Shown here one piece after another: positions 6,498-62,606 of a DNA stretch of 64,000 nucleotides. Position 1 is the stretch's first letter. The number at the start of each line of letters is the position of its first letter. Origin of the DNA: Yoonia sp. GPGPB17 (GTDB taxonomy: Bacteria; Pseudomonadota; Alphaproteobacteria; Rhodobacterales; Rhodobacteraceae); assembly GCF_037892195.1 (NCBI RefSeq), contig NZ_JATACI010000002.1, forward strand, positions 62,001-126,000. Direction: 5' to 3'. A program made the position numbers and the translations under genes. The notes under the pieces were generated by a model that saw only the letters and a list, made by a program, of their open reading frames with translations, was not told where the DNA came from and did no database searches.

Positions 6498-8590
6498 CTA
6501 GGCTGGTGCAGTCTGCCGCAATTGTCGCGCATTTAGGGCCAGTAGCGCAAGAACCACCGCCGCGCCGCCAATGTGCACACCGATGGGCGCAGGCCAGACA
6601 CAGGCGGCACCGGCCAGTCCAACAATAATACGGGCAATCGGGTTCAGCGGCGCCTCCATGCATCCCTGTAACGCGCCCGCCAGCCCGTAGATGCCTACGA
6701 CGCCAAAGGCAAAGATCACCAGCATCACGCCCCAGTCGCCCGACAGGAACGGCGTATAGGCCATGATTAACGGCACGATATAGAGGCCCTTCGCCAGCTT
6801 CCAACTGGCAAAGCCCGTGGCCATCGCAGGGGCCTTGGCAATGGCTGCAGCGGTAAAGGCTGCGAGTGCGACGGGTGGTGTCACGTTGCTGTCCTGGCTG
6901 AGCCAGAAGATGATCATATGCGCCGATAAAATGGCCGCGACCGCGACCTCTTGTGGCACAACCAGATCACGCAAGGGGGCGGCGACCTCTAGCGGCAAGG
7001 CTCGAATAATTGCCGTTGCGTCTTCGGTCGTCAGCGGGCCAGCCAGTACGGTTGGGTCCGGCACACCGAACATCAGCACCGCATTGCCTGCGTCGCCCAA
7101 AGTGCCCGCAGCCAAAGCCTCAATCACAAAGCGATCCGATATCATCCCCGCAAGGGCAGGGGCCGACAGTGTGGCCAGCACGATATAGGCTGCCGTGACT
7201 GGTAGGCCCATGCCGAGCACAAGGCTTGCAATTGCGACCATGACGATAGCAATCAACAGGTTGCCACCAGCCCAGTCGGCGATCATCAGACTAAATGTGT
7301 TCCCGATCCCCGCGGTCGCAATCACGTTGACCACAAGGCCTACGGCGCAAAGCAACACCGCCGTCATGATCATGCCTTTGGTGCCCATCACCAATGCCTC
7401 GAACACGGCGCGGGGCCCCATCGGGTTCTGGGTCAGCCAGCTGGACGCAATTACCGCCAGAATGCCAAAGACTGCGGCATAAGCAGGCGTAAAGCCTGAC
7501 ACAAGCATGGCAATTAAGCCACCAATGGGAATGACGAAACTCGCACCGCCCTTCTTGAAGGCGGAGCCAACGGTTTCGCCATCACTCTCCATCGGTTGCA
7601 GGCCTAAACGGCGGGCCTCAATCCGAACAAAGAACACGACTGACAGGAAGTAGAGCAAGGCTAAGCAGGGCGGCGACCGCGACGATGGTCTCATAGGAAT
7701 CTGCGTAAAACTTGCCATCACGAAGGCCCCCGCGCCCATGATGGGGGGCATCAATTGGCCACCGGTCGAAGACGCCGCCTCAACCCCACCCGCAAATTTT
7801 GATGGAAAGCCTGCCTTTTTCATCAGCGGGATCGTGATAACGCCGGTCGATGCGGTGTTCGCCACAGCCGAGCCGGAAATGGTGCCGGTCAGGCCAGAGG
7901 CGATCACCGCAACAATGCCCGGCCCCCCAACAAGACGCCCCGCAATCGCGCGCGCGATATTGATGACGAAATCCCCTGCGCCCGAGCGCAACAGAAATGC
8001 ACCGAAGATGATAAACAGGAACACGAAGGTCGATGAAATCCGCGCAATCGTGCCGAACATCGCATCATCACCAAAGATCGAACGGAATGCGATGGATTCC
8101 CAACTGAGCCCCGGAAAGGAAAACACGCCGCCAATCAACTGGCCCCACCAGCCAACATAGGAAATCGCGATGATAATCAGGCAGGGAATCACCCAGCCTG
8201 TCAAGCGGCGCGTCAACTCAATCGCGCCAATGATACAGATGACGGAAGCCACCCAATCAAGGGCCGAGAATTTGACACCGCGGTCGTAGATGCCCTGTTC
8301 GGCAAAGGGCATATAGATCGCGGCAGCTGCCACTAGCACACCTAAAGTCAAGTCAAACGCCAACATCGGCACGCTACGGGTCTTTCCCTGACTAGCGGGT
8401 GCAGCACGGCCGCTAGAAACGCGAAGCCTGCAAAGTGGTAGGCGTTGCGTTGGAATTCGGAAATGATCGGATCAAAGGCCACATAGATGTGCCCAACCGC
8501 GATCAGAAAACAGAGGATGGAAAGGGCCGTATTCGTCAGGCCGGTGAAGTCGCGCAGGGCGGCGGCTTCGACGGGGGTTTCATCAGACAT
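6498..8590 (-). pseudogene. TRAP transporter fused 4TM/12TM permease, frameshifted
   Basis: Membrane component of a tripartite TRAP importer (DctQM fusion) working with the TAXI binding protein upstream. The N-terminal part (8590 to about 8386, starting MSDETPVEAAALRDF) and the main part (from about 8380) are in different frames. One extra A in the run at 8381-8389 would join them as ...LVREKTRSVPMLAFDL.... A second defect is a compensating pair: one A missing near 7694 and one G extra near 7660, so about 12 residues (PMRPSSRSPPCLAL) replace an expected IPYETIVAVAALL-type helix. The remainder is a normal multi-spanning permease with SGTISGSAVANTASTG and GMGLPVTAAYI motifs, ending at 6498. Substrate is unknown. 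As written the gene is broken, and sequence error is possible. Confidence 0.85.
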
Positions 8591-8605
8591 ACGCGTCCCC
8601 TTAAA

Positions 8606-8641
8606 TACAAAACGGCCCGCACCTTTGGCGGCGCGGGCCGT
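8606..8641 (-). terminator. Intercistronic hairpin between TRAP binding-protein and permease genes
   Basis: Read on the minus strand, ACGGCCCGC (8641-8633) pairs perfectly with GCGGGCCGT (8620-8612), followed by TTTTGTATTT. It lies 9 nt after the binding-protein stop and just before the permease start. Such partial terminators often make the binding protein more abundant than the permease. Confidence 0.75.
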
Positions 8642-8649
8642 GGTCTTTC

Positions 8650-10854: not shown

Positions 10855-10858
<4 letters not shown>

Positions 10859-11693: not shown

Positions 11694-12704
11694 ATGCAAG
11701 CGCCATTTACGACCGTTTCCACCTTCCGTGATGTTTTGGCTGGAGCCCCGGGGCCAGACGCGACCGCCATTACGGGCGCGCAGGACCGCAACGCGCAATT
11801 GACCAAACCACCCGGCGCGCTGGGCCGTTTAGAGGATCTTGCGATCTGGTACGCAGGCTGGCGCGGCGATGCGCAACCACAGGTCACGGCACCTCAGGTG
11901 ATCATTTTTGCAGGCAATCATGGTGTCTGCGCGCAGGGCGTATCCGCCTTTCCACCCGAGGTGACCGTGCAAATGGTCGCCAACTTTGAACACGGCGGGG
12001 CCGCGATCAATCAGCTGTCGAAAGCTTTTGGGGCAAAGATGGATGTTTATCCGCTAGCCCTCGACACACCGACGGCAGATTTCACCACGACACCGGCCAT
12101 GACCGAGGATGCATTCATCGAAGCCCTGCAGACTGGCTGGACCGCCGTTGATCCAGATGCCGATCTTTTGGTGACGGGCGAAATGGGCATTGGCAATACC
12201 ACATCTGCTGCGGCGGTGGCCGCCGCCGTTCTTGGCGGCGAGGCTGCAGATTGGACCGGGCGTGGCACAGGCGTTGATGACGCCGGATTGGCGCGCAAAA
12301 CAGATGTTGTCGCGCGTGGTTTGGCCCTGCACGCCACCTCTGATCCTTTAGGGGCTTTACGCTGTTTTGGCGGGCGTGAGTTGGCGGCAATGGCGGGCGC
12401 GATTGCGGCTGCGCGCTACCACCGTATTCCGGTGATCCTTGATGGCTTCATCTGCTGTGCCGCCGCCGCGGCCTTGCACAAGGCGGTCGATGGTGCGCTG
12501 GATCACGCGGTTGCGGGCCACTTGAGTGCGGAAGGCGCGCATCAGCGCATGCTGGATGCGCTAGGCAAGGAACCCTTGCTGCGGCTGGGCCTTCGTTTGG
12601 GTGAAGGCTCTGGCGCGGCTCTGGCGATTGGCGTGTTGAAGGGGGCCATTGCCTGCCATTCGGGCATGGCGACCTTTGCCGAAGCTGGTGTGAGTGACGC
12701 CTAA
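11694..12704 (+). CDS. cobT: Nicotinate-nucleotide-dimethylbenzimidazole phosphoribosyltransferase
   Basis: Makes alpha-ribazole-5'-phosphate from dimethylbenzimidazole and nicotinate mononucleotide for the lower ligand of cobalamin. Recognisable segments are [53 protein letters not shown] and the C-terminal [15 protein letters not shown], which carries the catalytic Glu. At 336 aa it matches the family. It is transcribed divergently from cobS, a two-gene cobalamin block common in Rhodobacterales. Its stop overlaps that of the convergent antiporter gene by four bases (CTAA). Confidence 0.95.
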
Positions 12705-14584
12705 GACGCGTCCTTTTTGCGCTCGCTGGCCTGTTGGCGGGCGGTCAATTCCATCTCAAGCCCGCTGTTCAGGGCGCGCGCGCGTGCGACGTATTCGGGT
12801 ACATCGGTGATGGGCACGCCGGGTCGCCACAACTCGGCCAGTTCGCGCAGCGCGGTGCGGTCGTGCTGATAGAAGGCCTGTTCCAGCTCTGCTGCTTCAA
12901 ATTCCGACAAGCCAAGGTTTTCTAAAGCATAACGCCCCGCGCGCAGTGAGCTGTCGAACATTTCGCGCACGATGTCATTGGCGCCTGCATCATAAAGCTC
13001 ATGCACATGCACCCGGTCGCGGGCGCGGGCAATGATATGCAGATCGGGCCGTGCCTTACGGGCATAGCGCACCAGTTTGTTGCCCGCTTCGCGGTCATCG
13101 ACGGCGACGACCAGCACACGGGCATCCTCAAGCCCCGCAGCATTGAGCAGATCAGGGCGGGTCGGGTCGCCAAAGAAGCCCCGAAAGCCAAATTTGCGCA
13201 TCATTTGCACGGTGCTCAGGTCATTGTCGACGACGACAGTGGCAAATCCCGCGCTTTGCACCAGCCGGTTCACGATCTGCCCAAACCGGCCGATCCCGGC
13301 GATAATCACCGTACCTTGTTCATCGACCTCGTCATGTTCGGTTTCTTCGGTATCGCCCATGCGTCTGATGATCAGTTCATAGATGATGAACATTAGTGGC
13401 GTGATCAGCATCGACATGGCAATGATCAGCAACAGTTGCCCGGCTAGCCCCCCGTCCAGAACGCCCTGTTGCAGCGAAAATGAAATCAGGACGAAACCAA
13501 ATTCGTAAACTTGCGCCAGACCCAGCGTGAAGAGCCAGCGGTCTTTCCTATGCAGCTTGAACAGCAGGGCAAGGCCAAAGAGGATCACACCCTTGGTCGC
13601 CATCACTGCAATCGCCAACATAATAATCCGGGCAGGATCCCTAAAGAGCAGGGCAAAGTCGATACCCGCGCCTACGGTAATAAAAAACAAGCCCAAAAGT
13701 AACCCTTTGAACGGCGCAAGGTCGCTCTCTAGCTCGTGTCGAAATTCAGAGTTGGCAAGCACAACACCAGCCAAAAAAGTGCCCAAAGCGGGCGATAGAC
13801 CGACCATCGTCATCAGCACGGCCGTGGCGACCACCATCAGCAGGGCGAGCGCGGTATACATCTCGCGCAGGCGGGCATGGTGAATGTAGCGAAACAGTGG
13901 ACGGGTCAGAAACACCCCGGCCAGAACGACAATAGCAACGGCACCAAGGGTGACCAGCGTGACACCCCAGCCGGGCAGCCCTTCGACGAGGCTGAGGGTT
14001 GCGTGGTGGTCGGTGTCATGACCCGATGCTGCGTGGATCATTGATCCATCAGGTGCAAAGCTGACTACGGCGGGGACGGCCAGCAGGGGCAGCAGGGCCA
14101 ACATGGGGATCACGGCAATGTCCTGCGCCAAAAGTACAGAAAACGTGGATCGCCCGCCGCTGGTTTGCATCAGCCCTTTTTCGGTCAACGTCTGCAATAC
14201 GATCGCGGTGGAGGACAGCGCAAAAATCATTCCGATCGCGATGGCGGTTGACAGCGGATAGCCCATGGCAAGGCTGCCCGTTGTGATTGCGGCCATCGTT
14301 AAAAGTATCTGCATTCCCCCCAGTCCCAGCAATCGCTGGCGCATGTTCCACAATGCGCGCGGGTCCAGCTCCAACCCGATCAGGAACAGCATCATGACGA
14401 CGCCAAATTCAGCGAAATGTTGCAGGTCTTGTGTCTCTGATCCGACGAGGCCAGTGACCGGGCCAATCACGATGCCCGCCAGCAGATAGCCCAGTACCGA
14501 CCCAAGCCCCAGCCGCGCGGCCAGTGGCACCGCGATCACCGCAGCGCCCAGATAAATGGTTGCCTGAAACAGGAAGCTATCCAT
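12701..14584 (-). CDS. CPA2-family cation:proton antiporter with TrkA-N domain (KefB-like)
   Basis: A 627-aa inner-membrane monovalent cation/proton antiporter. The first ~400 residues contain about a dozen hydrophobic helices, with family landmarks such as [25 protein letters not shown] and [21 protein letters not shown]. The C-terminal cytosolic part (about 415-530) is an NAD-binding RCK/TrkA-N domain, [20 protein letters not shown] with the acidic end of strand 2 at VVVDND. This arrangement is that of KefB/KefC glutathione-gated potassium efflux or YbaL-type proteins. No KefF-like gene is adjacent. Confidence 0.92.
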
Positions 14585-14755: not shown

Positions 14756-17394
14756 CTAGCCCTCTGGAACTTCCAGAGCATAGGTGCGCCCGCGTTTGAC
14801 GTAGTTGAGCGCATCTTCCCCAATTGCAGTGACCTGACCACCGTCAAGCGCGCTGCCGACTTCGACGCGCACATAGCGCCCGTTGCTAAGCCGGACCAAG
14901 GCGCGCCGCGCGTTGGCACGTCCGTAAACACCGATCAGGTTGATTTCGCGCAGGCGGATCGCGTCCTCCTGGGTTGCCGCACGGGCCACGCCGCCGGGGA
15001 CGGGATCAAAGTTTTGTGGTGGCACAGGTGCAGCAGCGGCAATGGGCGCTGTTGCCGTAACTGCAGGTGTCTGTTGGCGGGCCTGCGCTGCGGCGACAAC
15101 AGTGCCAAAGTCGCTTGGTCGGGTGTCTGGTCGCAATGACAGGACAACGGCCAATGCGGTGCTGTTGTCAAAGCGAAGGGTTGCGTCATCCGTCGCGATA
15201 CCCGCGATGATATCGGTGATGTCAGGTGTGCCGGGGTCCACATTCGGCGACAGACCCTGCGGACGCAAACGAGGGCGCAGATCAACGATAGCGCCGTCTT
15301 CGATGATTGATGGATCAAGTGCTATCGCGCCAGAGTTTTGCAATTCAAGTCCCGCGATCCCGACGCTGCCAGGCGTCAGGTTGGTGTCATCTTGGGACGT
15401 GTCCTCGGGGATCGCGGATGCGGTGGTTTCGGTCTCATCAACTGTGTCATCATCTTGGGGCAATTGCGCATCGGCGGGGCGCAGGGGTGTGGCGAAATCC
15501 GGGCGCCCTGAGATGACAATCACGCCCTCTGGTGCCGGCGCCAGAAGCGCCATGCGGTCCAGATCAGCCTGATCCAAGGGAGGGCGCGGTGTGATCGTCA
15601 GGTCTGGAAGGCCCGCAATCACGACGGCCCCTTCGGGTGTGACAGTGCCCTCTTCGGTGGCCAGAATAAAACCATTATCGTCAAGCGGGAACACGATTTC
15701 AGGGGCAGGCGGATTGGCAGGAGCGACAAAGCTGAGGTCGGTATCCAAACCTGTCAGAGGAGGTACGTCAGGTTGGGCGATCCGCTGGGGTGGGGTCACA
15801 ACGGTAAGCGGCTGAAATGTCAGTAAGATTGCCCCGGACGGCACATCAATAAAGCGCGGTGCGCGCAGCCAGACCCCGGTTGCGTCATAGATGCGTGCTG
15901 CTTCATCTGGCGAGGGGACCCGGCCGCGTAGCACCGGGCTACCAACGCTAGCCTGCGCGGTTTCCAATGGTGGTGGGGCAGGGGGAGCCTGCACCGGTGC
16001 CATCAGCACATCGGCAAACAATGCGGTGATCGCAGCGGGTTGGGTGACGGTGGGAGTTGCGGCTTCAGCGGAGAAGTTCGGCAGGGGGCCTCTGGTGTGT
16101 CTTCTGCTCCAAAACCTGCAACGGTGAATGGTGGAATACTGGGGCCAGGTTGCGGAACAGGCTCTGATATCGCTTCGGGTGCCGGGGCCGGAACTGGTGT
16201 AACGGGGGCTGGTTCAGGCATGTCAGGTATGACCGCCGCAGTTTCGACTGGCACGGTGGCGGGGGTCTCTGCAACGTCCGGTGTGGATTGTTGAGACCAC
16301 ATCAAACCGCCAATCAGCAATGCCCCGACGGCGACAGAAGCAGCGATGAGCGCAGTTTTGTTACGGCTCGCGCTCTGTTGGGGCACAGGTTTGCGGTCGG
16401 CGGCGACCCCAAGTTTGGGCGCCGCATTTGGGCCATTGCCTGTCACGGCGACCAAGGCCGGTTTGACGGGTTTGAAATGTCCAGCGTGGTACTCTGCAAT
16501 CACAGGGTCAAGAAGAGCCACCGACGCAAAGACCGGGTTTGCCGGGATCAACGGGTCAGAGAGGGGTTCGGATTTGGTGACCACATATGCGTGGTACTCT
16601 TGCGGAACATAGTCCACCCAGATGGGTTGCACGGACGCAATAGCGTCAGTTATTGCAGCCTCAGCCTCAGCCTCAGCCTCAGCCTCAGCCTCAGCCTCAG
16701 CCTCTAGTGTATCATCAATCGTTTCATCCGAGATATCATCGGTTGCAGCATCGGTCCCACCTTGCCCAGCCAAGAGGGCTGCCAGATCATCTTTGTAGAT
16801 GTCTTCTTTCACCTCTTCGGGTAGATCGAACACCAAAAGGCGTGATTTGATGCGGGTGCCGACGACCATGACCGGCAACTCATCGCGCTCGATCAGGGCA
16901 TCGGGGCCAACCACGCTGCGCGCCATACCCGTGGGGCCGAAGAAAACTTCTTTTTGAAAGGTAAACGGCTCGGGCACGGCGACGAACGCGATGGGCTGAA
17001 ACCCATGCGCTGCAGCGAAGTTTTCAGCTTCTTGCAGGGTTTCGCGGGCAACTGCCGCGATATGGGTGCGTCCGCCGAATTTTTCGCTGTCGATGACTAA
17101 CTCATCCAGCGTGTAAGGGGTCGCACCTTCAAGTGCTGCGTGAATGTCCGCTTCGGTGGTCCGGGTACTATCAATTGCGATGTATTTGATCTGGTCAAGG
17201 GGGATAACCAGTTTGGTGCGCAGACCATCGGGTTCGATCAGCAGTGCCTTTTCGCGCAGTGCGTTCAGCTCGGCCTCGAGCGTTTCGCTGGCGACATCCG
17301 CCCGCCCAACGCGCCGCCACCCGCGCGGTACGCGGTGCAACAGCTCAATTCCGTCGAACGAAAGTGATAGCGCAAAATTGGTGATCATCGCCAC
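14756..17394 (-). pseudogene. Large GspL/PilM-like to PilP-like protein, frameshifted
   Basis: The N-terminal reading frame (17394 to about 16084) gives a cytosolic domain MAMITNFALSLSFDGIELLH... with an actin/GspL-like feel, an (Ala-Glu)n linker encoded by a hexanucleotide repeat, and one membrane helix (KTALIAASVAVGALLIGGLMW). After a Pro-rich stretch the frame is lost in a C5 run (16084-16088 on the minus strand). One more C restores ...EAPLPNFSAEAATPTVTQP..., which continues in frame to 14756. The last ~65 residues (LIGVYGRANARRALVRLSNG to YALEVPEG) look like a PilP/GspC domain. The restored length is about 880 aa. The domain reading is inference from pattern. It is a Rhodobacterales-type conserved hypothetical. 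Confidence 0.7.
16658..16705. repeat. Hexanucleotide tandem repeat GCCTCA
   Basis: Seven perfect copies of GCCTCA (16658-16699) plus one imperfect copy (GCCTCT). It encodes alternating Glu-Ala in the linker of the GspL/PilP-like protein on the minus strand. Unit length six means copy-number change keeps the frame but alters linker length by two residues. Confidence 0.95.
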
Positions 17395-17497: not shown

Positions 17498-18792
17498 TTA
17501 TGCCGTTGCTTTGGTCAACGCCTGATCAAGATCGGCGATCAAATCATCAGCATCCTCGATCCCGATGGACAAGCGTACGATACCGGGACCTGCACCCGCC
17601 GCCTCTTGCTGTTCCGCAGTTAATTGACGGTGCGTGGTTGAGGCAGAGTGAATGATCAGGCTACGCGCATCACCAAGGTTGGCGACATGGCTGAAAATCT
17701 CAAGGTTATCGACCAGTTTGATACAGGCATCATAGCCGCCTTTGACAGCGACGGTGAACAGTGCGCTTAAGCACCTTTCGGGCAGATTTTGGGAATGAGT
17801 TTCGCGTAGGGTGAACTATCAAGCCCGGCGTAGGTCACATAGTCCGTGCGCGGATCGTCCTCGAGCCATTTGGCGATCTTCATCGCGTTTTCGACATGGC
17901 GTTCCATGCGCAAAGACAGCGTTTCGATCCCCATCAGCGTATAGTGGGCGGCCTGCGGGTTCATCGTCATGCCCAGATCGCGCAGACCAATGGCGATGCC
18001 GTGGAAGGTGAAGGCGAGGGGGCCGAAGGTCTCGGCGAACTTCAGGCCGTGATAAGCCTGTTCCGGTTCGCTCAAGGACGGAAACTTGTCGTTCGCCGCC
18101 CAGTCGAATTTGCCGCTGTCCACGACACAACCACCGGTCACTGTGCCGTTGCCGGTCAGGTATTTGGTGGTCGAGTGGACCACCAAAGTCGCCCCATGCT
18201 CAATCGGACGGCAGAGGTAAGGCGTGGCCGAGGTGTTGTCGACAATTAGTGGGATGCCTGCTGCGTCTGAGATGGCCGAGATTGCGTCAAGGTCAGTGAT
18301 ATGTCCGCCGGGGTTTGCAATGGCTTCGCAAAAGACCGCGCGGGTATCATCATCAATCGCCGCTTTGACGGCATCGTGATCGTCGAAATCGACGAAGGTC
18401 GCGGACCAGCCAAAGCGTTTGATCGTCTGGCTGAACTGGGTGACCGTCCCGCCATAAAGACGGCTCGACGCCACGATGTTACGCCCCGGTTGCATCAGCG
18501 GGAAAAGCGCCATGATCTGGGCTGCGTGACCAGAGGAACAGCAAACGCCGCCAACACCACCCTCAAGCGTCGCGATGCGTTCTTGCAAGGCGGCGACTGT
18601 GGGGTTGGTCAGGCGGGAATAGATATAGCCGACCTCTTGGAGATTGAACAAAGCCGCCGCATGATCGGCATCGCGGAATACGTAAGCGGTGGTCTGGTAA
18701 ATCGGGACCTGCCGCGCGCCTGTCGCAGGATCGGGGCGGGCACCTGCGTGAATTTGCAGTGTATCAAAGCCGTAACTTGGGCCATCGGTCAT
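17498..18792 (-). pseudogene. metY: O-acetylhomoserine sulfhydrylase (MetY), frameshifted
   Basis: PLP enzyme forming homocysteine from O-acetylhomoserine and sulfide. The frame from ATG 18792 (MTDGPSYGFDTLQIHAGARP) contains the PLP lysine in HSTTKYLTGNGTV and stops at TAA 17767-17769 after ...KICPKGA. Immediately beyond, another frame continues the conserved C-terminus (ALFTVAVKGGYDAC, NLEIFSHVANLGDARSLI, STTHRQLTAEQQ) to TAA 17498-17500. The break is at CTTAAG (17766-17771); removing TT gives PKGASALFTV, close to the family consensus PKGAGALFTV. The restored protein would be about 430 aa, normal for MetY. As written it lacks the last ~90 residues. AAAGGGAG precedes the start. Confidence 0.9.
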
Positions 18793-19872: not shown

Positions 19873-21667
19873 TTACTCGCCCAAGGCGATGCCTTCGCGC
19901 CGCGGGTCGGCGCCACCGCTGAGTGTGTCGCCAATCGCGATGGCATGCAGGCCGGAGTTCAGGTCGCGGATGTTCACTTCAAAACCCCGTTCCACCAGCG
20001 CAGCTTCAAAGCTAGTCGCGTCGGTGCCGTCTTCAAGATCATAGGTGCCGAAGCGGTTCACCAGATGTGGCATCGCAACGGCCTGTTGCACGTCCATGCC
20101 CCAATCCACATGTGCGATGATCGCCTGTGCCACATAGCCGATAATCCGGCTGCCCCCGGGCGACCCGATCACAAGGCTGGGTTCACCGTCCTGCATTACG
20201 ATGGTGGGCGACATGGACGATCGTGGGCGCTTGCCCGGTTCGATCCGGTTGGCGATGGGGATGCCATCGCTGTGTGTGCGGAACGAGAAATCTGTCAGCT
20301 CGTTGTTGAGCAGGAACCCACGGACCATCAAACGTGATCCAAAGCCGTTTTCGATGGTTGTCGTCATCGACAAGGCGTTTCCATATTGATCGACGATTGA
20401 GATGTGCGACGTAGATGGCAGCTCCAGTGAGATATCATCGGCCAAGAGCATCGCATGGTCCCATTCGGGCGCGCCGGGGGCGACGTCTGTCAGAGCCGCG
20501 TCCCCGTCGAGAAGCGCTGCGCGTTCATCGAGGTAGGCGCCAAGCGGTTAGGCCTGCGGTTGGCATGGGCACAAAATCACTGTCAGCCATATAGCGGCCA
20601 CGGTCGGCAAATGCCAAACGCGAGGCATCACCGATCAAGCGCCATGTATCTGCACTCTCTGGCCCCATTTCAGCAAGATCATAACGGTCCAGCATGCCGA
20701 GGATCTGCCCGACGGTCAGCGCGCCGGAGGAGGGCGGCCCCATGCCGCAGACGTCCATCGTCCGGTAGGGCACGCAGACAGGGTCACGTTCGATCACCTC
20801 GTAGATTTCCAGATCGGTCGCCGTCAGCACGCCGGGGTTACCTGCTGCTGTTCTGACTGTGGCGACGATATCGTCTGCAATCGGCCCTTCATAGAAAGCG
20901 TCGCTGCCATGTGCTGCGATCAGGCGCAGTGTGTTGGCGTAGTCAGCGTTCACCAGCGTATCGCCAGCTTGCAGGGCATCACCGCCGGGGAAGAAATAAT
21001 CGGCTGTGCGGGTAAAGGTTTGCAGCCGCTCTGCACCACCAGCGATGGAGCTGGCGAGCCGTTCAGAGACTGTAAACCCGTCTTCCGCCAGCGAAATGGC
21101 AGGGGTGAACAACCCACCCCAATCTGCGCGTCCCCAGCGCGCGTGTGCTTCTTCCATCAGCATCGGCGTGCCGGGTGTGCCAACCGAGCGCCCCCCGACA
21201 ACGGCATCCCAAAAACCCATCGGTTCACCATCCTCGGTCTGAAACAGGGTCGGTGTGACGGCGAGTGGTGCGGTTTCGCGGCCATCCAGCGTAGTAACCT
21301 CGCCCGATGTCGCGTCGTACCAGACAAGGAAAGCGCCACCGCCAAGGCCGGATGATTGCGGTTCAACAAGACCGAGGACAGCTTGGACGGCGACCATGGC
21401 GTCTGCCGCTGTCCCACCGTCGCGCAGTACTGCGGCACCGGCTTCAACGGCCAATGGGTTTGCTGCGGCGACCATCCAGTTCTCTGCGGTTGTCGGTGTG
21501 CCCGCTTGTTTTGCTGCCAAGGCAGCCTGCGCGGCCTCGGACACCGCAGCAAAGGTTGAGAGGCCGCTTGTGACTTCTGGTGCGACTGCGTCGGCGGCTT
21601 GCTGCGCAGCCAACGGCCCAGCGAGACCCGTAGACAGTGCCAAAACCACGAATGAAAATTTTGTCAT
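19873..21667 (-). pseudogene. ggt: Gamma-glutamyltranspeptidase, frameshifted
   Basis: Periplasmic Ntn-hydrolase that cleaves gamma-glutamyl bonds (glutathione salvage). ATG 21667 opens a signal peptide (KFSFVVLALSTGLAGPLAAQ). The large-subunit frame contains AANPLAVEAGAAVLRDGGTA and PQSSGLGGGAFLVW. It ends prematurely at TGA 20525-20527 after MPTAGLTAWRLPR. Another frame continues the family sequence (AYLDERAALLDGD..., then LPSTSHISIVDQYGNALSM, where the Thr before Ser-His is the autocleavage nucleophile, and the oxyanion-type GSPGGSRIIGYVAQ) down to 19873. Removing one base near 20537-20542 rejoins them. The restored length of ~597 aa is normal. As written neither fragment could be active. 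Confidence 0.88.
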
Positions 21668-21966
21668 TTTTGAAAATCCTTTGCTGTGGGTCATGAAAAG
21701 CATGGGACGGGACAGGCTGAAATCAATAGAAAACGCCCCATATGTCATGGGTTAATTTGTCAGCGCTTGCGTATTTTTTTGGCAATAACCTAAAGGGTAA
21801 ACAGCCAAAACCAGTGGATTTTGGCCTTTTTGCGGTCTGATAAACAAATGGACCGGTGCAGATTCATTCGCTAGCGTCATCGTAGGTAGCAAAAGAAAGG
21901 CGAGTCCAAGCGCCTCATAGCCACCTAAAAATATAGTCAAAAGACTAAAATAATGGGGACAAAATC
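21668..21966. other. A/T-rich intergenic region between ggt and uspA
   Basis: About 300 nt separating divergent genes. It is visibly richer in A and T than its surroundings (runs such as TATTTTTTTGGC and AAAATATAGTCAAAAGACTAAAATAAT). No convincing gene. It probably carries the promoters of ggt and uspA. Confidence 0.5.
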
Positions 21967-28796: not shown

Positions 28797-28883
28797 CGAC
28801 ACACACAATATGGGGCCCACGGCGCTTTGGCCACGGCTAGTTTACATCAAGCGACCGAACTATTTGTCCGGCAAGCTTCGGCA

Positions 28884-37568: not shown

Positions 37569-37831
37569 ATGCGGATTATCTGCCCAAATTGCGGTGAGCG
37601 CGACCGGCGTGAGTTTTATTACCAAGGCGATGCGCTTGCGCTTGATCGCCCGGCTGAGGATGCGGGGTTGGACGCTTGGGATGACTACCTGCACAACCGG
37701 GACAACCCTGCGGCGACACCCGCGATCTGTGGTTTCATGAGGCCGGGTGCGGTGCCTGGCTGGTCGTCGAGCGCAACACCGTGACTCATGCGGTGCATCA
37801 GGCAACTCTGGCCGAGAAGGTGAAGCGATGA
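37569..37831 (+). pseudogene. soxD: Sarcosine oxidase delta subunit, frameshifted
   Basis: Small zinc-binding subunit of the complex. The frame from ATG 37569 (MRIICPNCGERDRREFYYQG) contains the first zinc knuckle CPNC and remains conserved through AWDDYLHNRDNPA. Near 37716-37725 the frame is lost: the original runs on as ATPAICGFMRPG and stops at 37784. Another frame gives the expected continuation LWFHEAGCGAWLVVERNTVT to LAEKVKR and TGA 37829-37831, which overlaps the soxA ATG as ATGA. An indel in the ACACCCGCG segment explains this. As written the C-terminal His/Cys ligands are lost. Confidence 0.88.
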
Positions 37832-47275: not shown

Positions 47276-47493
47276 GAAGATGTCTTTCCTTGTTTTCGGC
47301 AGTCTCAGCGGCGAAACATCCGAGCTTTTACTTGCCATATATCGACGATTATTTAGTTCGAAAACTGTGTTGATGGGTCTGAAACACGAATCACGCACTA
47401 CTCATGTGCATTTACGATCATGTGACATCGCGTTTCAGCAGATTGAAATGACCCAAGGTTCGGCACACATCCTGTCATAGAAAGGATGTCGTC

Positions 47494-50486: not shown

Positions 50487-52482
50487 TCACCGCCACAGAA
50501 ATGCGTAGCTGGCAAAGACCCCCTGAAGTTTGGCAAGACTGCGATTAAAAATCCCTGCTTTGGGCAAGTCATTGTTTTCAATGCGATCCACAATCACTTC
50601 CACCGGGCACGGTAGGCCGGTGACAGGATCGCGGTAACGTGGGTAGGCGATCAAGGTCGCGTGTACCAGCGCAATGAGATCCACCCGTGCCTGCCTGCGA
50701 TCAATCGGCATTGCCCGATCGTCGGTCAGCCCCCAACCGGCATAAAAGGGCGTCCCTAAGCAAGTTACCTTCTTGCCGCGCAACAGAGCCTCAAACCCTA
50801 GCAGAGATGTCATGGTCCAAACCTCATCAACGGCCTCAATTGCATCGATAGGGTCCGCCTTGGACAGGACCACATCGGCCAGTTCCTTGGCGTTTGGGAC
50901 CGCGCCGGGACGCAACCCGGCTTCGACATCAGGGTGTGGCTTGTAGATGATGACGGCTGCCGGGTTGGCCTTGCGTGTGATTTCCAGCAGCGTCAGATTG
51001 TCGGCAACTTCCGATGTCCCGAGCTTGATTGATGCGTCATCCTCGACCTGTCCGGGCACAAGGATACGGCGGCCCTTGGGCAGTGTGGGCAGCGGTTTGG
51101 CCTTCAGATTGTATTTCGACAACCGCGCCTCAACAATGCGCTCAATCAAGGCGCCAAGCGCGCAGTCGCGCACTTTCGTTCAGCTTGTCAGAGGCGTTGA
51201 TCAGGTTTTCCAGCAGGCTGGCGCGGGTTGCATCGTAGTAGATACCGGTGTCGTCCAAAACAAGACTTAGGGGGGCGACCAGGTTTGCCCCCAAGCCACG
51301 CGAGCGCAAGAATCCGTCTTCCACCAATATCGTATCATCCGCAGGTGCGGTGGCCCATCGCATCAAACGCAAGCCTTTCTTTGCGGCACGCGCTTTGGCC
51401 TTTGCATCAGTTGCAAAGGACACTGGCTTTGGCTTGCCAAAGAACGCCTGCAACGGTTTGCGCTTCCACATACGCATATCGGCGGCTACCCAGCCTGCAT
51501 AGTCATCGCGCCATGCGTTGGCAGCTACCGTTAGGGTGGCGGCGGCCTCTTCATAGCTACACAGCCGGTCGTGAAACGGATCGTACCACGTTGGATAAAG
51601 GATCATCGCGCCCGCAAATAGCTGCGCACGCGTCAAACCGCGCTGGCGCCGTTGTACCGGCGTCCGATCATCGGTCAATCCCCAGCCGGTATAAAATGGC
51701 TGTCCGAAAACCACAGGCCGATGCCCCGCCATGACGGCCTCAAAACCCAATTGTGAACTGACGGTGTAAACGGCGATTGCACCCTCCAACAGATCCCAGG
51801 GCGAGACATTGTGATCGGCAAATGAAATCTGCGTGCTGGCATCCTTCGGGGTAAAGTACCCGCTACGATGGCCAGCCACCGTTTCGGGATGCGATTTGAT
51901 GACAATCTGTGCGCCGGGGTATTCGGTTTGGGCATAGAATAGCATCTCTCGGAATGTGTTGCTGTCGGCGCCACAGGCTCTGACCGATGCATCATTTCGG
52001 GTCTGATCCACCACCAGAACGTACCCCGGTTCCGGTGCGGGCAGGGCAGGGTCAAAACGGTTGTATTTTGAGATATGGTCGGACTTCAGCGCAGCAATTC
52101 CGGCCCGCGCCCGATCCAAAAGCGCGGTATCGTCAAGGGGGTCTTCGGACAGGATGATCTCAAGGTCAGACCGCGTGTTGGGGTCATAATGCGCCCCGTT
52201 GCGATCAATGTTCAGCCCTATAGGCGGGTGCGCATCGCGCCCTAACCCGACCGAGCGCAGGAAACTGTCTTCAATCCGCACCAGGGGGCTGTTCTTGATT
52301 TCGGCAATGGCCTCACCTCTTGGCGATGTCGGGCTATGTCCCCAGACGCCCACCAGATCACCCTGACCAGGTGCGCCAAGCTTGATGTCATAGCCCGCAA
52401 GTTCGACAATGCGTCGGACGCGGCCCTTGGTTAGCAGGCCGCCGTTATAGACATAGAGGTTTTGGCGCGGATCTTGGATCAT
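50487..52482 (-). pseudogene. kpsC: Capsule polysaccharide export protein KpsC, frameshifted
   Basis: KpsC-type transferase of group 2 capsule assembly, normally with two similar halves (dual beta-Kdo transferase). The first half and the start of the second run from ATG 52482 (MIQDPRQNLYVYNGG) to a stop near 51142. The expected continuation is in another frame, VRDCALGALIERIVEARLSK to the end at 50487, containing TLPKGRRILVPGQVEDDASI and SLLGFEALLRGKKVTCLGTP. One base too many near 51183-51187 separates them. Both halves show paired TPFYAGWGLTDDR / QPFYTGWGLTDDR repeats. The restored protein would be about 665 aa, normal. It lies 10 nt after kpsS. Confidence 0.88.
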
Positions 52483-52492
52483 CTCGCGCAAA

Positions 52493-53788
52493 CTATTGCA
52501 GGGCGGTGCTGTGCACAACGCGCAATGGCGCAGCCTTGTCGGATTGCCTTGTCAGCAAGGCATCGTAAGGGTCGGCATCGTCCAGCATCTTATCGACCAG
52601 TTCGCGCAGCAACTGCTGACGGCCAGAGGCGGAATAAAAGCCACCGGGCACCTGGCTGGTCTCCAAAAGAAACTGACGGTATTCGCGATAAGCCTGTGCA
52701 TCAGGGCGTTGCGGCGCGGCAAAAAAATCAGTCAGGGGCTGATCGGAAACAAACTCGGGCTTGGAAAACACAGCACTGCCAAAGGCCTTCAGCGGAATAC
52801 CCCGCCAAAGCGCCTGCTGCCCAGAGGTTGAGTTGACCGTTACCGCAGATCGCGCTGCATCCAGAATATGTGCCAACTTGCCACCGCGCAGATAGTGCGT
52901 GCGCGCAGCAACGCCGTGTTGCGCCGCTGTCTGCCGGATCATCTGGCGCAAGGGCGACTGTCCACTCTCAAGTGGATGGGCCTTGAATACAAGGTGATGG
53001 TGCGCTGGTGCACCGGTTGCAAAACCCGCAATCACCTGCGCGATGAAAGCTTCCATGTTTTCAAAGGATGAATGCGCCTGAAAGCTGGCGTCATGTTCCA
53101 ATTGCAGCAAGGCGATATGATACGGATAGCCGCCTGCTTTGATCCGCCTTGTGGCCCAAAACCTGTGCACAGCCAGAAACGGCATCAACAGCAAGCGTTT
53201 GGTGTAGAGCATCGCTTCGCGATGAACGGGCAATGCACGATGGGGTTTGAAACCGGGATAACGCCTGTTTCGGAACATAACAAACCAGTGGTAGGCGGCC
53301 CCGTAAAAGATATGCTGGCGCATATCGCCCCAATGGGACGGTGGTGTTGGCATATCAATGTCAGAATGGGCCAACCGGTCGCGCATATCCGCCACGGAGA
53401 AATCCATAAGACGCGAATGCCCGTTGCTGCCACCCCGTTCATAGGTGATCCAATAGGGCCGCATGTAACCCTCTTCAAACACGTGAACACGTAAACCGAG
53501 TGCTTTGGCCTGCCGTACGGCCTCGGCGTGGGCCGGGCGGGTGTCGCCATAAAGCACAATGTCGGTAATCGCATGCTCTTTGATGATCGCGCTGAGTGTC
53601 TTTGGCCATTTGGTCATGTCACCTTGGAACGGAATATACCCCGGTGTGCGCCCCCAGAACGCTGCATCCCCGGCATTGAACCCTACACGCCATACCTGCG
53701 CATCGGCTTTTCGCAGCATCTGACCCAACTGGCGAAAGAAGGGGCCATGCGGACCTTGCAGGAAAAGATAGGTTTTGTGTTGTGGCAT
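52493..53788 (-). CDS. kpsS: Capsule polysaccharide export protein KpsS
   Basis: A 431-aa partner of KpsC that adds the first Kdo to the lipid anchor of group 2 capsules. It starts MPQHKTYLFLQGPHGPFFRQ, the standard KpsS opening, then contains DIVLYGDTRPAHAEAVRQAK, HVFEEGYMRPYWITYERGGS and the late TVNSTSGQQALWRGIPLKAF block. ATG 53788 is preferred over 53806. It is intact, on the minus strand inside the riboflavin cluster, leading kpsC. Confidence 0.92.
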   Translation of the reverse strand: MPQHKTYLFLQGPHGPFFRQLGQMLRKADAQVWRVGFNAGDAAFWGRTPGYIPFQGDMTKWPKTLSAIIKEHAITDIVLYGDTRPAHAEAVRQAKALGLRVHVFEEGYMRPYWITYERGGSNGHSRLMDFSVADMRDRLAHSDIDMPTPPSHWGDMRQHIFYGAAYHWFVMFRNRRYPGFKPHRALPVHREAMLYTKRLLLMPFLAVHRFWATRRIKAGGYPYHIALLQLEHDASFQAHSSFENMEAFIAQVIAGFATGAPAHHHLVFKAHPLESGQSPLRQMIRQTAAQHGVAARTHYLRGGKLAHILDAARSAVTVNSTSGQQALWRGIPLKAFGSAVFSKPEFVSDQPLTDFFAAPQRPDAQAYREYRQFLLETSQVPGGFYSASGRQQLLRELVDKMLDDADPYDALLTRQSDKAAPLRVVHSTALQ

Positions 53789-53913: not shown

Positions 53914-54510
53914 ATGTTCACAGGAATTGTCACCGATATTGGCACCGTGCTGGAACTGGAACAGCGTGGCGATTTGCGCGCACGGATCGGGACTGGGTAC
54001 GATATCGCTGGGATCGATATTGGGGCGTCTATTGCCTGCAATGGCGTATGCCTGACGGTGATCGCGTTGGGGCAAGAACCACAAAACTGGTTTGATGTCG
54101 AAATTTCAGCCGAGACTGTGGGCGCGACTAACGTGGGCGATTGGACCGTCGATGGAAGACTCAATCTGGAGCGCGCCCTGAAAGTAGGCGACGAACTGGG
54201 CGGGCATATTGTTTCCGGCCATGTGGATGGCGTGGCCGAGGTTGTGGGCATGCAAGACGAAGGCGACAGCACGCGTGTCACTTTCCGCGCACCAAAGGAC
54301 CTGGCGCGATTTATTGCACCAAAGGGATCGGTGGCCCTGAATGGCACGTCTCTGACCGTGAATGAGGTGGATGGTGTGGATTTCGGGATCAACTTTATCC
54401 CGCATACCAAGATCGCGACGACATGGGGCGACACGGCGGTCGGTGACCGGATCAATCTCGAGATTGATACGATGGCTCGCTATGTCGCGCGTTTGCGCGA
54501 TTACGGCTGA
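53914..54510 (+). CDS. ribE: Riboflavin synthase alpha subunit
   Basis: Dismutates two lumazine molecules to riboflavin. Two tandem lumazine-binding barrels are visible: MFTGIVTDIGTVLELEQRGD with SIACNGVCLTVI (first), and GHIVSGHVDGVAEVVGMQDE with LNGTSLTVNEVDGVDFGINF (second). At 198 aa it is normal. GAAGGGAGA precedes the ATG. The stop overlaps the next start as TGATG. Confidence 0.96.
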   Translation: MFTGIVTDIGTVLELEQRGDLRARIGTGYDIAGIDIGASIACNGVCLTVIALGQEPQNWFDVEISAETVGATNVGDWTVDGRLNLERALKVGDELGGHIVSGHVDGVAEVVGMQDEGDSTRVTFRAPKDLARFIAPKGSVALNGTSLTVNEVDGVDFGINFIPHTKIATTWGDTAVGDRINLEIDTMARYVARLRDYG

Positions 54511-54733
54511 TGAAACCGCTGGTCCTTGCGTCCATCGAGGACGCGACGGGGGACCGCTGCGTTGATATTATGCGCCTGACAGATGGGCAGTTCGCCTATC
54601 GTGAATGCTTAAGCGCGACCCCGAAGATGCGCATGGTTGGCGCTACCTGTCTGAGGCACCGCCAACACCGTTTGACACCGAAGCCGCCGCGCGCGAGGCT
54701 GCGTTACGGGATGTGAAATGGATGACGGAATGA
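54510..54733 (+). pseudogene. Small conserved protein, frameshifted
   Basis: ATG 54510 opens MKPLVLASIEDATGDRCVDI, a protein type I associate with riboflavin clusters of Rhodobacterales. At 54607-54613 the sequence TGCTTAAGC breaks the frame; removing TT gives ...YRECKRDPEDAHGWRYLSEA and continues to TGA 54731-54733, which overlaps the next gene's ATG 54730 as ATGA. This coupling supports the restored reading (about 74 aa). Function unknown. Confidence 0.75.
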
Positions 54734-55290
54734 CAGCGGGTATTGGACATAACTCTGGTCGGGTTGACGCGCCGGGGCAAAGCTGGCGCAAGCATGTCTG
54801 GACTAAGGCACGTAAAGAACTGATGCCGACGCTGCCGTTGGAAGTGGTCCGCTTGCGGGTCCGGCGGGCGGCGGAACTGGGGTTGCCATATAAGACCTAT
54901 GCCGGGATCAGGGCCAGTTCCGGCCATGATTTGATCGGGTTCCTGTTCTCCAACAATGCGTTGCAGGTGCTGCGCGAGGGGCAGGCGATGCCATCTGACA
55001 GGGCAGCAAAACTGAGCGCATTGGTGCGAACAGAATGCGCGGGCGTCGCACATCTGCCAGTCACGCCAACGCATCTGGGCAGCCTGCCGGGTTTGAGCGC
55101 TGCGCATGCGGCACCTGCTTTCAATGCCAGCTGGGCCGAAATGCGGAATCAGATGCGGGCAATCATCAACGCAAAGGGCCATCCCGCGGATCGCATTGTT
55201 ATTGTTGGTGACACCGCGTTTGAACGTGAGTGGGCAGAGGCGGCGCGCGCGGCAGGTTATTTGCAGGCGGATCGGTTCTTTCAAAGGTAA
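54730..55290 (+). CDS. Conserved hypothetical protein in riboflavin cluster
   Basis: A 186-aa protein starting MTAGIGHNSG, an IGHN-type opening seen in several alphaproteobacterial proteins of unknown role. A basic helical region (RKHVWTKARKELMPTLPLEV) and LELGLPYKTYAGIRASSGHD-like segment follow, then helices to a C-terminal Arg-rich tail. ATG 54718 would add four residues. Coupled to the preceding gene by ATGA and followed by a perfect hairpin. No function can be assigned. Confidence 0.7.
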   Translation: MTAGIGHNSGRVDAPGQSWRKHVWTKARKELMPTLPLEVVRLRVRRAAELGLPYKTYAGIRASSGHDLIGFLFSNNALQVLREGQAMPSDRAAKLSALVRTECAGVAHLPVTPTHLGSLPGLSAAHAAPAFNASWAEMRNQMRAIINAKGHPADRIVIVGDTAFEREWAEAARAAGYLQADRFFQR

Positions 55291-55310
55291 GGTGGATCAG
55301 GATCCACCTT
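55289..55310 (+). terminator. Perfect hairpin after the 54.7-kb gene
   Basis: AAGGTGGATC pairs exactly with GATCCACCTT across a 2-nt loop, overlapping the stop codon. No T-run follows, so it is a weak terminator or a processing or attenuation structure before ribB. Confidence 0.55.
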
Positions 55311-55389
55311 ACGGCAGACCACCCTTAGTTACTTTCCAAAACCCCGGCGCTGGGCTATCTGCCTTTGCAACACGCCTGCGGAGACACCT

Positions 55390-60347: not shown

Positions 60348-60362
60348 GTTCACCTATTGTTC
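60348..60362. promoter_or_regulatory. LexA (SOS) box GTTC-N7-GTTC
   Basis: GTTC at 60348-60351, seven bases (ACCTATT), GTTC at 60359-60362: an exact match to the alphaproteobacterial LexA operator. It lies 12 nt before the mmcB ATG at 60375. mmcB is a known LexA-repressed DNA-damage gene in Caulobacter, which supports both the site and the gene call. Confidence 0.9.
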
Positions 60363-60374
60363 AGGGTATTGTGC

Positions 60375-60840
60375 ATGCCAGATGATCACGACACACCCAG
60401 CCTTATGCCTGGCCAATTGCTTGCCCGTGGCGTGTCGCGCGCCTTGCGCAGCCTTGACTTTGTCAGCGTCGAGGAACTGGTGCCAACTTCGGGCTTGCGC
60501 GTTGATGTGATGGGTTTGGGCCCCCAAGGGAGAGGTCTGGATCGTCGAATGCAAATCAAGCCGCGCCGATTTTCAGTCCGATCATAAGTGGCAAGGTTAT
60601 CTGGAATGGTGCGACCGATTTTTCTGGGCCGTCGACAGCGATTTCCCGACCGAGTTGTTACCGGATGACACCGGGCTGATCCTCGCCGATGCCTACGATG
60701 CCGAGATCATCCGCATGGGGCCTGAAGCGAAACTGGCGGGTGCGCGGCGCAAGGTCATGGTACAGAAGTTTGCACGCCACGCGGCGGTACGCGCGCAAGC
60801 GGCGCGTGATCCTGATTTTGTTGTTGAAAGAATCTATTGA
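60375..60840 (+). pseudogene. mmcB: DNA repair protein MmcB, frameshifted
   Basis: MmcB-type DNA repair nuclease-like protein of the SOS response. ATG 60375 (MPDDHDTPSLMPGQLLARGV) reads through SLDFVSVEELVPTSGLRVDV, then shifts: a single extra A in CAAGGGAGAG (about 60528-60532) leads to RGLDRRMQIKPRR and a stop at 60585. In the other frame the conserved core continues: EVWIVECKSSRADFQSDHKW, GYLEWCDRFFWAVDSDFPTE, LLPDDTGLILADAYDAEIIR, to TGA 60838-60840. The ECK and DF residues are PD-(D/E)xK-type. The restored length is about 154 aa, normal. It sits behind a LexA box. Confidence 0.87.
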
Positions 60841-60939
60841 ATGTCAAGGGTCTGGTTTCAGCCCTTAGCAGACGTTGCCTAACGCGATCAGATCGACGTT
60901 ATGAGGACATATCCTGCGCTGTGTACCACAAGCCATTGC

Positions 60940-62606
60940 CTAGGCAATCTCTGCAATCCACGCCGCGATCCGACCTGGGCTTTGGTAGAGTGCCATCTGC
61001 CCCTGATCCCCAATCTCATGCAGGGTGATACGGGGGGTCTCGGCGCATAGTGTGCGCAGAGAGGCAATATCCTGCACTGTGTTTTCTGTCCCATGGATGA
61101 AGGTCACCGGTATCGCAGATGCCACCTGCGCCAAGGTCGCGCTCCAATCCTGTCCCCACGTCGCGACATCGCTGACGATCTGGTCGGCATCTTCAAAGCA
61201 GTAGGCTAGGTTGCTGCGCAGTGTCTCGCGCAGGTTCGGGTCAGCTAGCGCGTTGGCGTCAGCTGGGCTGTCGCGCACAAAGAAATCGATGATCAGGTCT
61301 TCACCTATCCGGCCAGAGCGAAAAAGATGCGCGGCACTGCGATACCCCAACCGCAGCGCTGCAGATGCGGAATGCGCTGCTAGAAACGACCGCCGGATCG
61401 ACGGCGCTGCGGCCTCAAATGCGCGCAGATCACGGACCGGTGCCCCGGTGGAGATCAGCACCAAGCCAGCGATTTCATAACCCTGCGCGAGCAGTCGGCC
61501 AACGGCCTTTGCGGCCAAAATACCCCCTTCTCGATGGCCCACGATCACAGGGCGCCCCCGCAGGCCTCGCGTAAATCATCCAGCCAATCGGCGCAAAGCA
61601 CGTCAGAACTGTCCCCACGCACCGGGTCGCTGCCGCCAAAGCCGGGGCGACAGGGCGCGATGACCTGCAGACCTGCAGATGCGAAGGCGTCGCGCACGGC
61701 GCTGTTTTCCTGCGGCCTTGAGGATGTGGTAAAGTACAGCACGCTGTGACCCGCACCGTATCGAATGGTGCGGAGCATGCCTGTATCGCGGGTGATATCG
61801 CGAACCACGAAACCCTCGCCCATGGTTGCGTCGACCTGTGGTGATGGCCGCGCTTCGGCGACTTGCCGCAGGATTGTCAAGAACTGCACCAATTCGGTCT
61901 GCCGCCGTGCTCCGGTCTTTTTCAACAGTACTTTGATATGGCTGCGAATGGTCGCCACGCTGCGGCCCAGATGGCCCGCTATCTCTTGCGCGGTGCGCCC
62001 TTCGAGCAGGCCGCGGGCGACGCGGGTTTCGGCGGCACTCAGGTTCAGGTTCTCGGACAGATCAGCAGCAAAGACAGGGGTCCAGTCAATCGATGACAAC
62101 CGGACCACGGTTTCGGCCAGCGGATAGGCCGATTTCAGGTTCTGGCCCAAAGGTGTTTCGACAGCCAGAAAACTGCGCAGCGTGCCCGGGCCGGTCATCC
62201 GATAGGCGCGGCGTGCGGTTTCAGGCAGTGTGACAAAAGGTTTGGAGGATGTGGCGATCAGTGTGGCACAATCCACGCCTTCTTCATCGAGCAAGGCGCG
62301 TGTGCTGGCATTGTGCGACACAATGTTATGCGCCTTGTCCAGCAAGATCGCGGGCGAGGCCACCTGATCCAGCAGATCTTTTTCTTCCTGAGTGTTGTTG
62401 AGCCTCTCTGAGGCGAGCAGCGCCTCTTGAAAAACACTTGAAATCTCGCGATAGGCCAGTCCTTCATCGCGCAGAATGCTGTCGCTCCACGCGTCCCAGG
62501 CTGCCAGAAGATCGCCGAAACGTTCTGGCTTGATCGCCACGCCATAGGCGCTCGCGACCAGTTTCAGCGTCGCATGTTCCTCGGTTTCTACGTCACGATC
62601 TTCCAC
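60940..62606 (-). pseudogene. LuxR-type regulator fused to alpha/beta-hydrolase fold, frameshifted
   Basis: ATG 62606 opens a PAS-like N-terminus (about 80-180, e.g. SPAILLDKAHNIVSHNASTR), then a LuxR helix-turn-helix at about 190-245 (LSAAETRVARGLLEGRTAQE, IAGHLGRSVATIRSHIKVLL). An alpha/beta-hydrolase fold follows (HSVLYFTTSSRPQENSAVRD to PCRPGFGGSDPV). The frame stops at 61545 after EACGGAL. One more C near 61561-61566 gives EALRGRPVIVGHREGGILAA and continues to 60940. The nucleophile elbow is GHREGG, so the catalytic Ser is Arg; the His region reads DQGQMALYQS. It looks like a non-catalytic ligand-sensing domain. The restored length is about 555 aa. Confidence 0.82.

What the first reader, a model, noticed from the sequence alone, without database searches (positions are those of the whole stretch)
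6498..62606. At least nine genes in 64 kb are split by 1-2 nt indels with both halves conserved
TRAP permease (8381-8389, plus a compensating pair near 7694/7660), GspL/PilP-like (16084-16088), metY (17766-17771), ggt (20537-20542), soxD (37716-37725), kpsC (51183-51187), the 54.6-kb gene (54607-54613), mmcB (60528-60532) and LuxR-hydrolase (61561-61566). In each, the second frame continues recognisable family sequence, and in soxD and the 54.6-kb gene it ends in an ATGA overlap with the next gene. Core genes (dnaG, rpoD, recJ, hom, nrdR, ribB) are intact. Short homopolymers account for some sites, not all. Either the assembly carries many indels or this strain is losing transport, capsule and sarcosine functions.
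Basis: partly seen in the sequence, partly recalled or inferred. Interest (0 to 1): 0.75.

Follow-up and report, generated by a model that had tools for sequence, protein, structure and literature searches.

The report
Sequencing errors, not gene loss

Summary
All nine split genes exist in the window, and so does the compensating pair in the TRAP permease; relatives carry these genes as single open frames. By one reciprocal test this genome has 31 frame breaks in 220,650 comparable bases, its relative G011 1 in 216,970. The window is no worse than the rest. Indispensable genes are also cut, with no whole copy found: rpoB, ileS, lgt. Broken genes show the same constrained substitution pattern as unbroken ones. 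A cell with these breaks should not live, so these breaks, and by the even rate probably nearly all, are errors. The likely source is nanopore miscalling: gaps are enriched for the word GCTTA and for homopolymers, GCCGGC is nearly missing (2.8 against 18.7-34.6 places per 100 kb in five relatives), and the genome encodes a NaeI-family restriction enzyme (NaeI cuts GCCGGC, recalled) beside a C5 methylase. That link is aggregate and explains only part of the sites. Both error kinds are published. Interest is low, except as a warning and an accidental methylome read-out.

The parts
6498..8372 (-). TRAP transporter permease (DctM), main piece; holds the compensating pair near 7660/7694
   Evidence: Pfam DctM; single 697-701 aa ORF in 3 relatives; shifted segment; GCTAAGC word at 7660
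8348..8590 (-). TRAP permease, N-terminal piece in another frame
   Evidence: 86-89% identical to the start of the same 3 relatives' ORFs
14756..16021 (-). PilP/GspL-like gene, C-terminal piece
   Evidence: matches the second half of one ORF in same-genus genomes; PilP-family model on the G011 protein, below its cut-off
16003..17394 (-). PilP/GspL-like gene, N-terminal piece
   Evidence: matches the first half of the same ORFs in G002, G006, G009, G011
17767..18792 (-). metY (O-acetylhomoserine sulfhydrylase), N-terminal piece; break near 17766-17790
   Evidence: Pfam Cys_Met_Meta_PP matched at 1-290 of 381 positions only; one ORF of >=426 aa in 79 of 80 named loci, the 80th runs off its contig; GCTTAAGC at 17765
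19873..20451 (-). ggt (gamma-glutamyltranspeptidase), C-terminal piece
   Evidence: Pfam profile positions 325-512
20525..21748 (-). ggt, N-terminal piece
   Evidence: Pfam profile positions 2-287; one ORF in G002, G004, G011
37569..37784 (+). soxD, N-terminal piece; the other frame runs to a stop at 37829 overlapping the next gene (ATGA at 37828)
   Evidence: Pfam SoxD 2-48 of 82; one 87-aa ORF in 6 relatives
50487..51173 (-). kpsC-type capsule gene, C-terminal piece (pieces searched apart; site not examined further)
   Evidence: Pfam Capsule_synth; single ORF in G002 and G011
51142..52518 (-). kpsC-type capsule gene, N-terminal piece
   Evidence: Pfam Capsule_synth
54510..54716 (+). small gene split near 54607; the other frame runs to a stop at 54731 overlapping the next gene (ATGA at 54730)
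   Evidence: 73-aa ORF in G002, G003, G011; GCTTAAGC at 54607
   Evidence: one 166-184 aa ORF in 6 relatives
60940..61548 (-). LuxR-hydrolase gene, hydrolase piece
   Evidence: Pfam Hydrolase_4 21.2 bits, below its cut-off of 27
61545..62606 (-). LuxR-hydrolase gene, LuxR piece
   Evidence: Pfam GerE; 31 of 39 non-self homologues are chains of 528-574 aa

Best explanation
The breaks are consensus errors of the assembly, not mutations. Small net length errors (mostly 1-2 nt) occur about once per 7 kb of comparable coding DNA, whatever the gene does. Most likely this is a nanopore assembly without adequate short-read polishing. Part of the errors are ordinary homopolymer errors. Another part is motif-linked: a NaeI-type restriction-modification system marks GCCGGC, the basecaller does not know the mark and writes words such as GCTTAGC or GCTTAAGC, which differ in length and so break frames. 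Shown: the breaks, their rate, their presence in indispensable genes, the GCCGGC deficit, the GCTTA association, and the NaeI-family and methylase genes. Inferred: that GCCGGC is actually marked here, that its misreading makes these words, and that the reads were nanopore.
For: Rate: 31 breaks in 220,650 covered bases (16 seen with two or more references, 15 with one), against 1 in 216,970 in G011 by the same test reversed (Fisher p 1.6e-8 in 10-base bins). Window 7 in 52,960 against 24 in the rest, p = 1.0. Indispensable genes cut with no whole copy found: rpoB (17 of 18 other genomes in one frame, 1 no match); ileS (9 of 11 others over the cut-off in one frame, the other two in pieces in genomes 81-83% complete); lgt (17 of 18 others over the cut-off, own two pieces below it, 1 no match). 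Of five long essential genes chosen beforehand 2 were broken (rpoB, ileS) and 3 whole (rpoC, dnaE, valS), about 2.5 breaks expected (approximate lengths). Differences at codon positions 1+2 relative to 3: 0.143 in 26 broken genes, inside the 0.132-0.216 bootstrap range of 156 unbroken ones. No excess of in-frame stops (17 in own, 37 in the reverse direction, both noisy). 23S rRNA: 4 private indel events in own against 0, 0 and 1 in G009, G011 and G002. Motif: GCTTA in 6 of 28 break zones, 0.4 expected, and at 11 of 111 frame-changing gaps, 1.05 expected; CTAAGC 7, 0.14 expected. GCCGGC 2.8 against 18.7-34.6 places per 100 kb; 0 of 136 aligned GCCGGC of five relatives kept (shared places counted per relative), against 0-37% for 15 control palindromes. 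NaeI family E 1.1e-39 beside a C5 methylase. Both GCTTAAGC words of the window lie on reported break sites.
Against: No reads or platform record were available. Only 3 of 28 break zones hold an exact GCCGGC in a relative (0.2 expected); within one mismatch it is 14 against 7.7, and two look-alike control words are also enriched (CGGCCG 13 against 7.6, CCCGGG 8 against 3.9). A strict GCTTA count covers 6 of 28, so most breaks are not explained by it. The rpoB break zone shows no GCTTA; the ileS zone was not looked at for words. Three other GCTTAGC/GCTAAGC copies in the window (14885, 40730, 47207) are not on reported breaks. Of the aligned GCTTAGC-type places with a length change only one faces an exact GCCGGC. 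The GCCGGC deficit could partly be genuine restriction avoidance: relatives also have fewer than expected (0.45) and 3 of 80 short loci of named relatives have none. Maximum homopolymer length in break zones is no greater on average than in controls (3.36 against 3.35). Other words also differ between own and relatives (CCAGG and GAATC more frequent in own). G007 has a 63% identical methylase, no NaeI hit in the 20 kb read, and 5 GCCGGC there. The reversed test uses this genome's own fragmented ORFs among its queries, which lowers its sensitivity somewhat.
Confidence: 0.93

Rival explanations
1. Real pseudogenes: the strain is losing transport, capsule, sarcosine and methionine functions.
Against: rpoB, ileS and lgt are broken too without a whole copy found; rate is even; no relaxed constraint; no excess of in-frame stops (noisy); 23S rRNA has private indels.
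Confidence: 0.03
2. Real scars: the NaeI-type enzyme cut its own chromosome and error-prone repair left changed words at former GCCGGC sites.
For: NaeI-family gene present, GCCGGC nearly absent, changed words at some break sites.
Against: The genome would also have lost rpoB, ileS and lgt; homopolymer-type gaps are mixed in; I know of no such genome-wide process (recalled, not searched).
Confidence: 0.02
3. A variant of the error reading: random long-read indels (for example low-coverage PacBio) with no motif; the GCCGGC deficit is only restriction avoidance. Its odds are a share of the error reading, not added to it.
For: Own is longer at 14 of 23 resolved sites and only 4 of 23 are in runs of 3 or more; exact GCCGGC at only 3 of 28 zones.
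Against: GCTTA (p 1.1e-8, 454 words) and CTAAGC (p 1.5e-10, 917 words) at frame-changing gaps; several GCTTAGC/GCTTAAGC places with a length change face GCCGGC or a near variant in relatives.
Confidence: 0.2
4. Genome-wide programmed frameshifting makes the split genes readable.
For: A recurring word near some breaks.
Against: Breaks go both ways by 1 or 2 nt, contexts vary, the relative G011 shows 1 break in 216,970 bases, and 23S rRNA is affected too.
Confidence: 0.01

Closest known systems
Modification-mediated nanopore consensus errors (PMC10687267, part 1 of 5 read; PMC6591954, passages)
   Same: Systematic consensus errors tied to modified bases. PMC6591954: with default models about 70% of consensus errors of then-current ONT basecallers in a K. 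pneumoniae genome lay in Dcm motifs.
   Different: The Listeria cases in PMC10687267 were mostly mismatches; here only frame-changing errors were studied, and the motif and mark are inferred, not measured.
Gene-fragmenting indels in long-read assemblies (Kastor, PMC12007338, passages)
   Same: In one bacterial nanopore assembly 1,317 detected indels lay within genes and 909 genes had been annotated as frameshifted; insertions often followed A or T without a particular homopolymer.
   Different: No restriction-modification link in the passages seen.
NaeI type II restriction-modification (PDB 1ev7, 1iaw)
   Same: Endonuclease of the NaeI family next to a C5 cytosine methylase.
   Different: Distant relative (phmmer E 2.2e-19 over 248 residues); specificity and methylation here not tested.

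Membership tests
Sequencing or assembly indel errors | Hit indispensable single-copy genes | tested here: met
   rpoB, ileS, lgt
Sequencing or assembly indel errors | Rate independent of gene function and region | tested here: met
   window against rest p = 1.0; 2 of 5 preselected essential genes broken, about the general rate
Sequencing or assembly indel errors | Reads disagree with the consensus | not testable with these tools
   no reads held
Modification-mediated nanopore errors | Errors linked to a sequence word or motif | tested here: met
   GCTTA/CTAAGC association; covers a part of the sites only
Modification-mediated nanopore errors | Motif is the target of a methylase of the strain | tested here: inconclusive
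   C5 methylase beside a NaeI-family enzyme; methylation not measured; exact GCCGGC at 3 of 28 zones
Modification-mediated nanopore errors | Platform is nanopore, native DNA | not testable with these tools
   genome unnamed
Real pseudogenisation | Relaxed constraint, in-frame stops, spares essential genes | tested here: not met
NaeI restriction-modification | NaeI-family endonuclease | tested here: met
   PF09126 136.8 bits, cut-off 25; 1ev7 E 2.2e-19
NaeI restriction-modification | Specificity GCCGGC | tested here: inconclusive
   GCCGGC deficit in the genome; no biochemical test

The most novel reading that the evidence does not exclude
The assembly is an accidental read-out of this strain's DNA modification: a NaeI-type system marks nearly every GCCGGC, and an untrained basecaller writes length-changed words there. 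So the specificity of an uncharacterised restriction-modification system can be read from the missing word and the false words of a public assembly alone. The mark might be bulkier than plain methylcytosine, since it produces insertions.
Probability: 0.45. Interest if true: 0.4.

Novelty: not a real feature. Interest (0 to 1): 0.17.

Why it matters
It stops a false conclusion of gene loss and flags this genome (held here as the one genome of its species) as unfit for pseudogene counts, metabolic reconstruction or protein catalogues until it is polished. If the motif link holds, the same simple test (one absent palindrome, excess false words, a neighbouring methylase) could find similarly damaged public assemblies and predict methylase specificities.

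Tried and rejected
Rejected: the 23S alignments (sequences in mixed orientation); only one search is used, without G004, whose 23S is partial. Rejected: the first detector run, which counted antisense ORF artefacts; keep only the best-scoring frame. The in-frame stop count is dominated by over-long starts and spurious ORFs and is used only as 'no excess'. Methylation words GANTC, GATC and CCWGG were not enriched in break zones. The 111 frame-changing gaps contain alignment noise and are used only for word enrichment. Among the 31 breaks, two single-reference ones align poorly (identity 0.44-0.45) at the site. Dropped before site-level counts: 3 of 31 breaks (capsule, two efflux-type transporters). 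Literature: one search for GCCGGC with nanopore, methylation and errors gave 2 papers; the passages seen do not report this. One search on nanopore systematic errors at motifs and two on long-read indels. In one search I labelled window 45695-47398 'recJ?'; one search shows that it is a TPR protein and that recJ is 27033-28820. I did not establish the platform, the strain's name, or the mark.
Full report
What is there. The window is C2:62001-126000 of a 4,213,184-base genome in five contigs, completeness 96.23%. By its nearest named loci it belongs to the Rhodobacteraceae (records very near it may be left out of that collection). Over a 5.4-kb stretch the same-genus genomes G002, G004 and G011 are 80-81% identical in DNA. 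I compared intact ORFs of six relatives with the window's DNA and looked for one gene matched in two frames. The PilP/GspL-like gene had one reference in that test, but four same-genus genomes match both its pieces in one ORF of 868-891 aa. The 54.6-kb gene and the LuxR-hydrolase gene were confirmed by hand, and so was the compensating pair in the TRAP permease. metY, for example, is one ORF of at least 426 aa in 79 of 80 loci from named relatives; the 80th runs off its contig.

It is the genome, not the window. The same test on C2:1-400000 and C2:2860001-3060000 gives 31 breaks in 220,650 covered bases. Turned round, with G011 as target, it gives 1 in 216,970 (Fisher p 1.6e-8). Of the 31, 16 are seen with two or more references and 15 with one; 13 of those 15 rest on G011, the relative taken in bulk. 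In the smaller comparison the regions of G002, G003, G004, G006, G009 and G011 hold 0, 0, 0, 0, 1 and 1 break with two or more references, and 0, 3, 0, 2, 2 and 2 with any. The window's share, 7, is what its length predicts (p = 1.0). The reversed test has this genome's fragmented ORFs among its queries and is somewhat less sensitive.

Indispensable genes are cut. RNA polymerase beta (rpoB) is split into profile positions 2-676 and 676-1238 with no other copy found; 17 of 18 other genomes have it in one frame and one incomplete genome has no match. Isoleucyl-tRNA synthetase is split. So is lgt: its two pieces each fall below the family cut-off, while 17 of 18 others have a match over it and one has none (the 'TGA' flagged at the end of many of these matches is, for G011, the stop of a single 323-aa ORF). 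HisH, pyruvate carboxylase and polyphosphate kinase are among the other broken genes. rpoC, dnaE and valS are whole. rpoB, rpoC, dnaE, ileS and valS were chosen before looking; lgt was found by the scan. Two breaks in five genes of about 18 kb is what the general rate predicts (2.5). That rpoB, ileS and lgt cannot be lost is recalled knowledge. Split rpoB can work in the laboratory at certain places (recalled), but three such genes together are not plausibly explained so.

No sign of decay. Between this genome and G011, differences at codon positions 1+2 relative to position 3 are 0.143 in 26 broken and 0.170 in 156 unbroken genes, within the bootstrap range. In-frame stops are not in excess (noisy). 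The 23S rRNA carries four private indel events, against 0, 0 and 1 in three relatives.

What kind of error. Of 26 sites examined (capsule and two efflux sites left out) 23 could be resolved: this genome is longer by 1-2 nt at 14 and shorter at 9, and 4 of 23 lie in runs of three or more. Break zones contain GCTTA in 6 of 28 cases, 0.4 expected, and runs of five C or G in 4, 1.2 expected. Over frame-changing gaps in coding alignments (111, with noise) GCTTA (11, expected 1.05) and CTAAGC (7, expected 0.14) stand out; AAAGG, CCCCC and AAAAA come next among five-letter words. Among 5-7-mers compared with the relatives the strongest outlier is GCCGGC, which is nearly absent (observed/expected 0.07, against 0.45 in relatives; 2.8 against 18.7-34.6 places per 100 kb; 3 in the window against 43.8 in shuffles). 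CCAGG and GAATC deviate the other way, which I did not pursue. Of 136 aligned GCCGGC of five relatives (shared places counted per relative) none is kept, and 14 have a frame-changing length difference nearby (10%, controls 0-5%). GCTTAAGC is in excess (40 against 8.7, palindromes counted twice). Its two copies in the window lie on reported break sites, and one GCTAAGC lies on the TRAP pair; three further GCTTAGC/GCTAAGC copies do not lie on reported breaks. At aligned GCTTAGC- or GCTTAAGC-type places with a length change relatives show an exact GCCGGC once and near variants at several others.

A likely cause. The genome has two C5 cytosine methylases. Next to the chromosomal one lies a protein of the NaeI endonuclease family (PF09126, E 1.1e-39; PDB 1ev7). 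NaeI cuts GCCGGC (recalled), and GCCGGC is listed as an m5C motif of Aeromonas hydrophila NEB724 in PMC8565308 (passage). Modified motifs are a documented source of nanopore consensus errors (PMC10687267, part 1 of 5 read; PMC6591954, passages), as are gene-breaking indels in long-read assemblies in general (PMC12007338, passages). So I read the assembly as nanopore-based, with homopolymer errors and errors at marked GCCGGC. The second part is inference, at about 0.65 that it contributes. Against it: only 3 of 28 break zones hold an exact GCCGGC in a relative (expected 0.2), and control words CGGCCG and CCCGGG are mildly enriched within one mismatch. The rpoB zone shows no such word. Avoidance of the site could explain part of the deficit; 3 of 80 short loci of named relatives also have no GCCGGC. 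G007 has a related methylase, no NaeI hit in the 20 kb read, and 5 GCCGGC there.

Verdict. Nothing here needs a biological cause beyond, perhaps, a DNA mark that upset the basecaller.

Noticed in passing
L243:8438-10351 (own C2:2813438-2815351): NaeI-family endonuclease beside a C5 methylase (best PADLOC model DruM2), flanked by a SIR2-HerA pair: a small defence island.
   Followed up: partly
L244:10649-12782 (own C4, a 37,241-base contig): Second C5 methylase followed by an unassigned protein that may be its restriction enzyme (no Pfam hit for the piece 11997-12782); by eye among plasmid- and conjugation-type genes.
   Followed up: partly
window 55287-55312: Inverted repeat GTAAGGTGGATC-AG-GATCCACCTTAC upstream of ribBA; short matches to this place are numerous in five same-genus genomes; by a strict pattern 2 in 600 kb of own and 14 in 1,140 kb of G011.
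   Followed up: partly
window 60940-62606: LuxR-type regulator and alpha/beta hydrolase in one chain in many homologues, an unusual domain pair.
   Followed up: no
own C2:3183021-3185849 (L206): 23S rRNA with four private indel events and a lower family score than the full-length genes of G002, G009 and G011.
   Followed up: partly
own C2, 600 kb examined: CCAGG and GAATC are relatively more frequent than in five relatives; may reflect different methylases or avoidance in the relatives.
   Followed up: no
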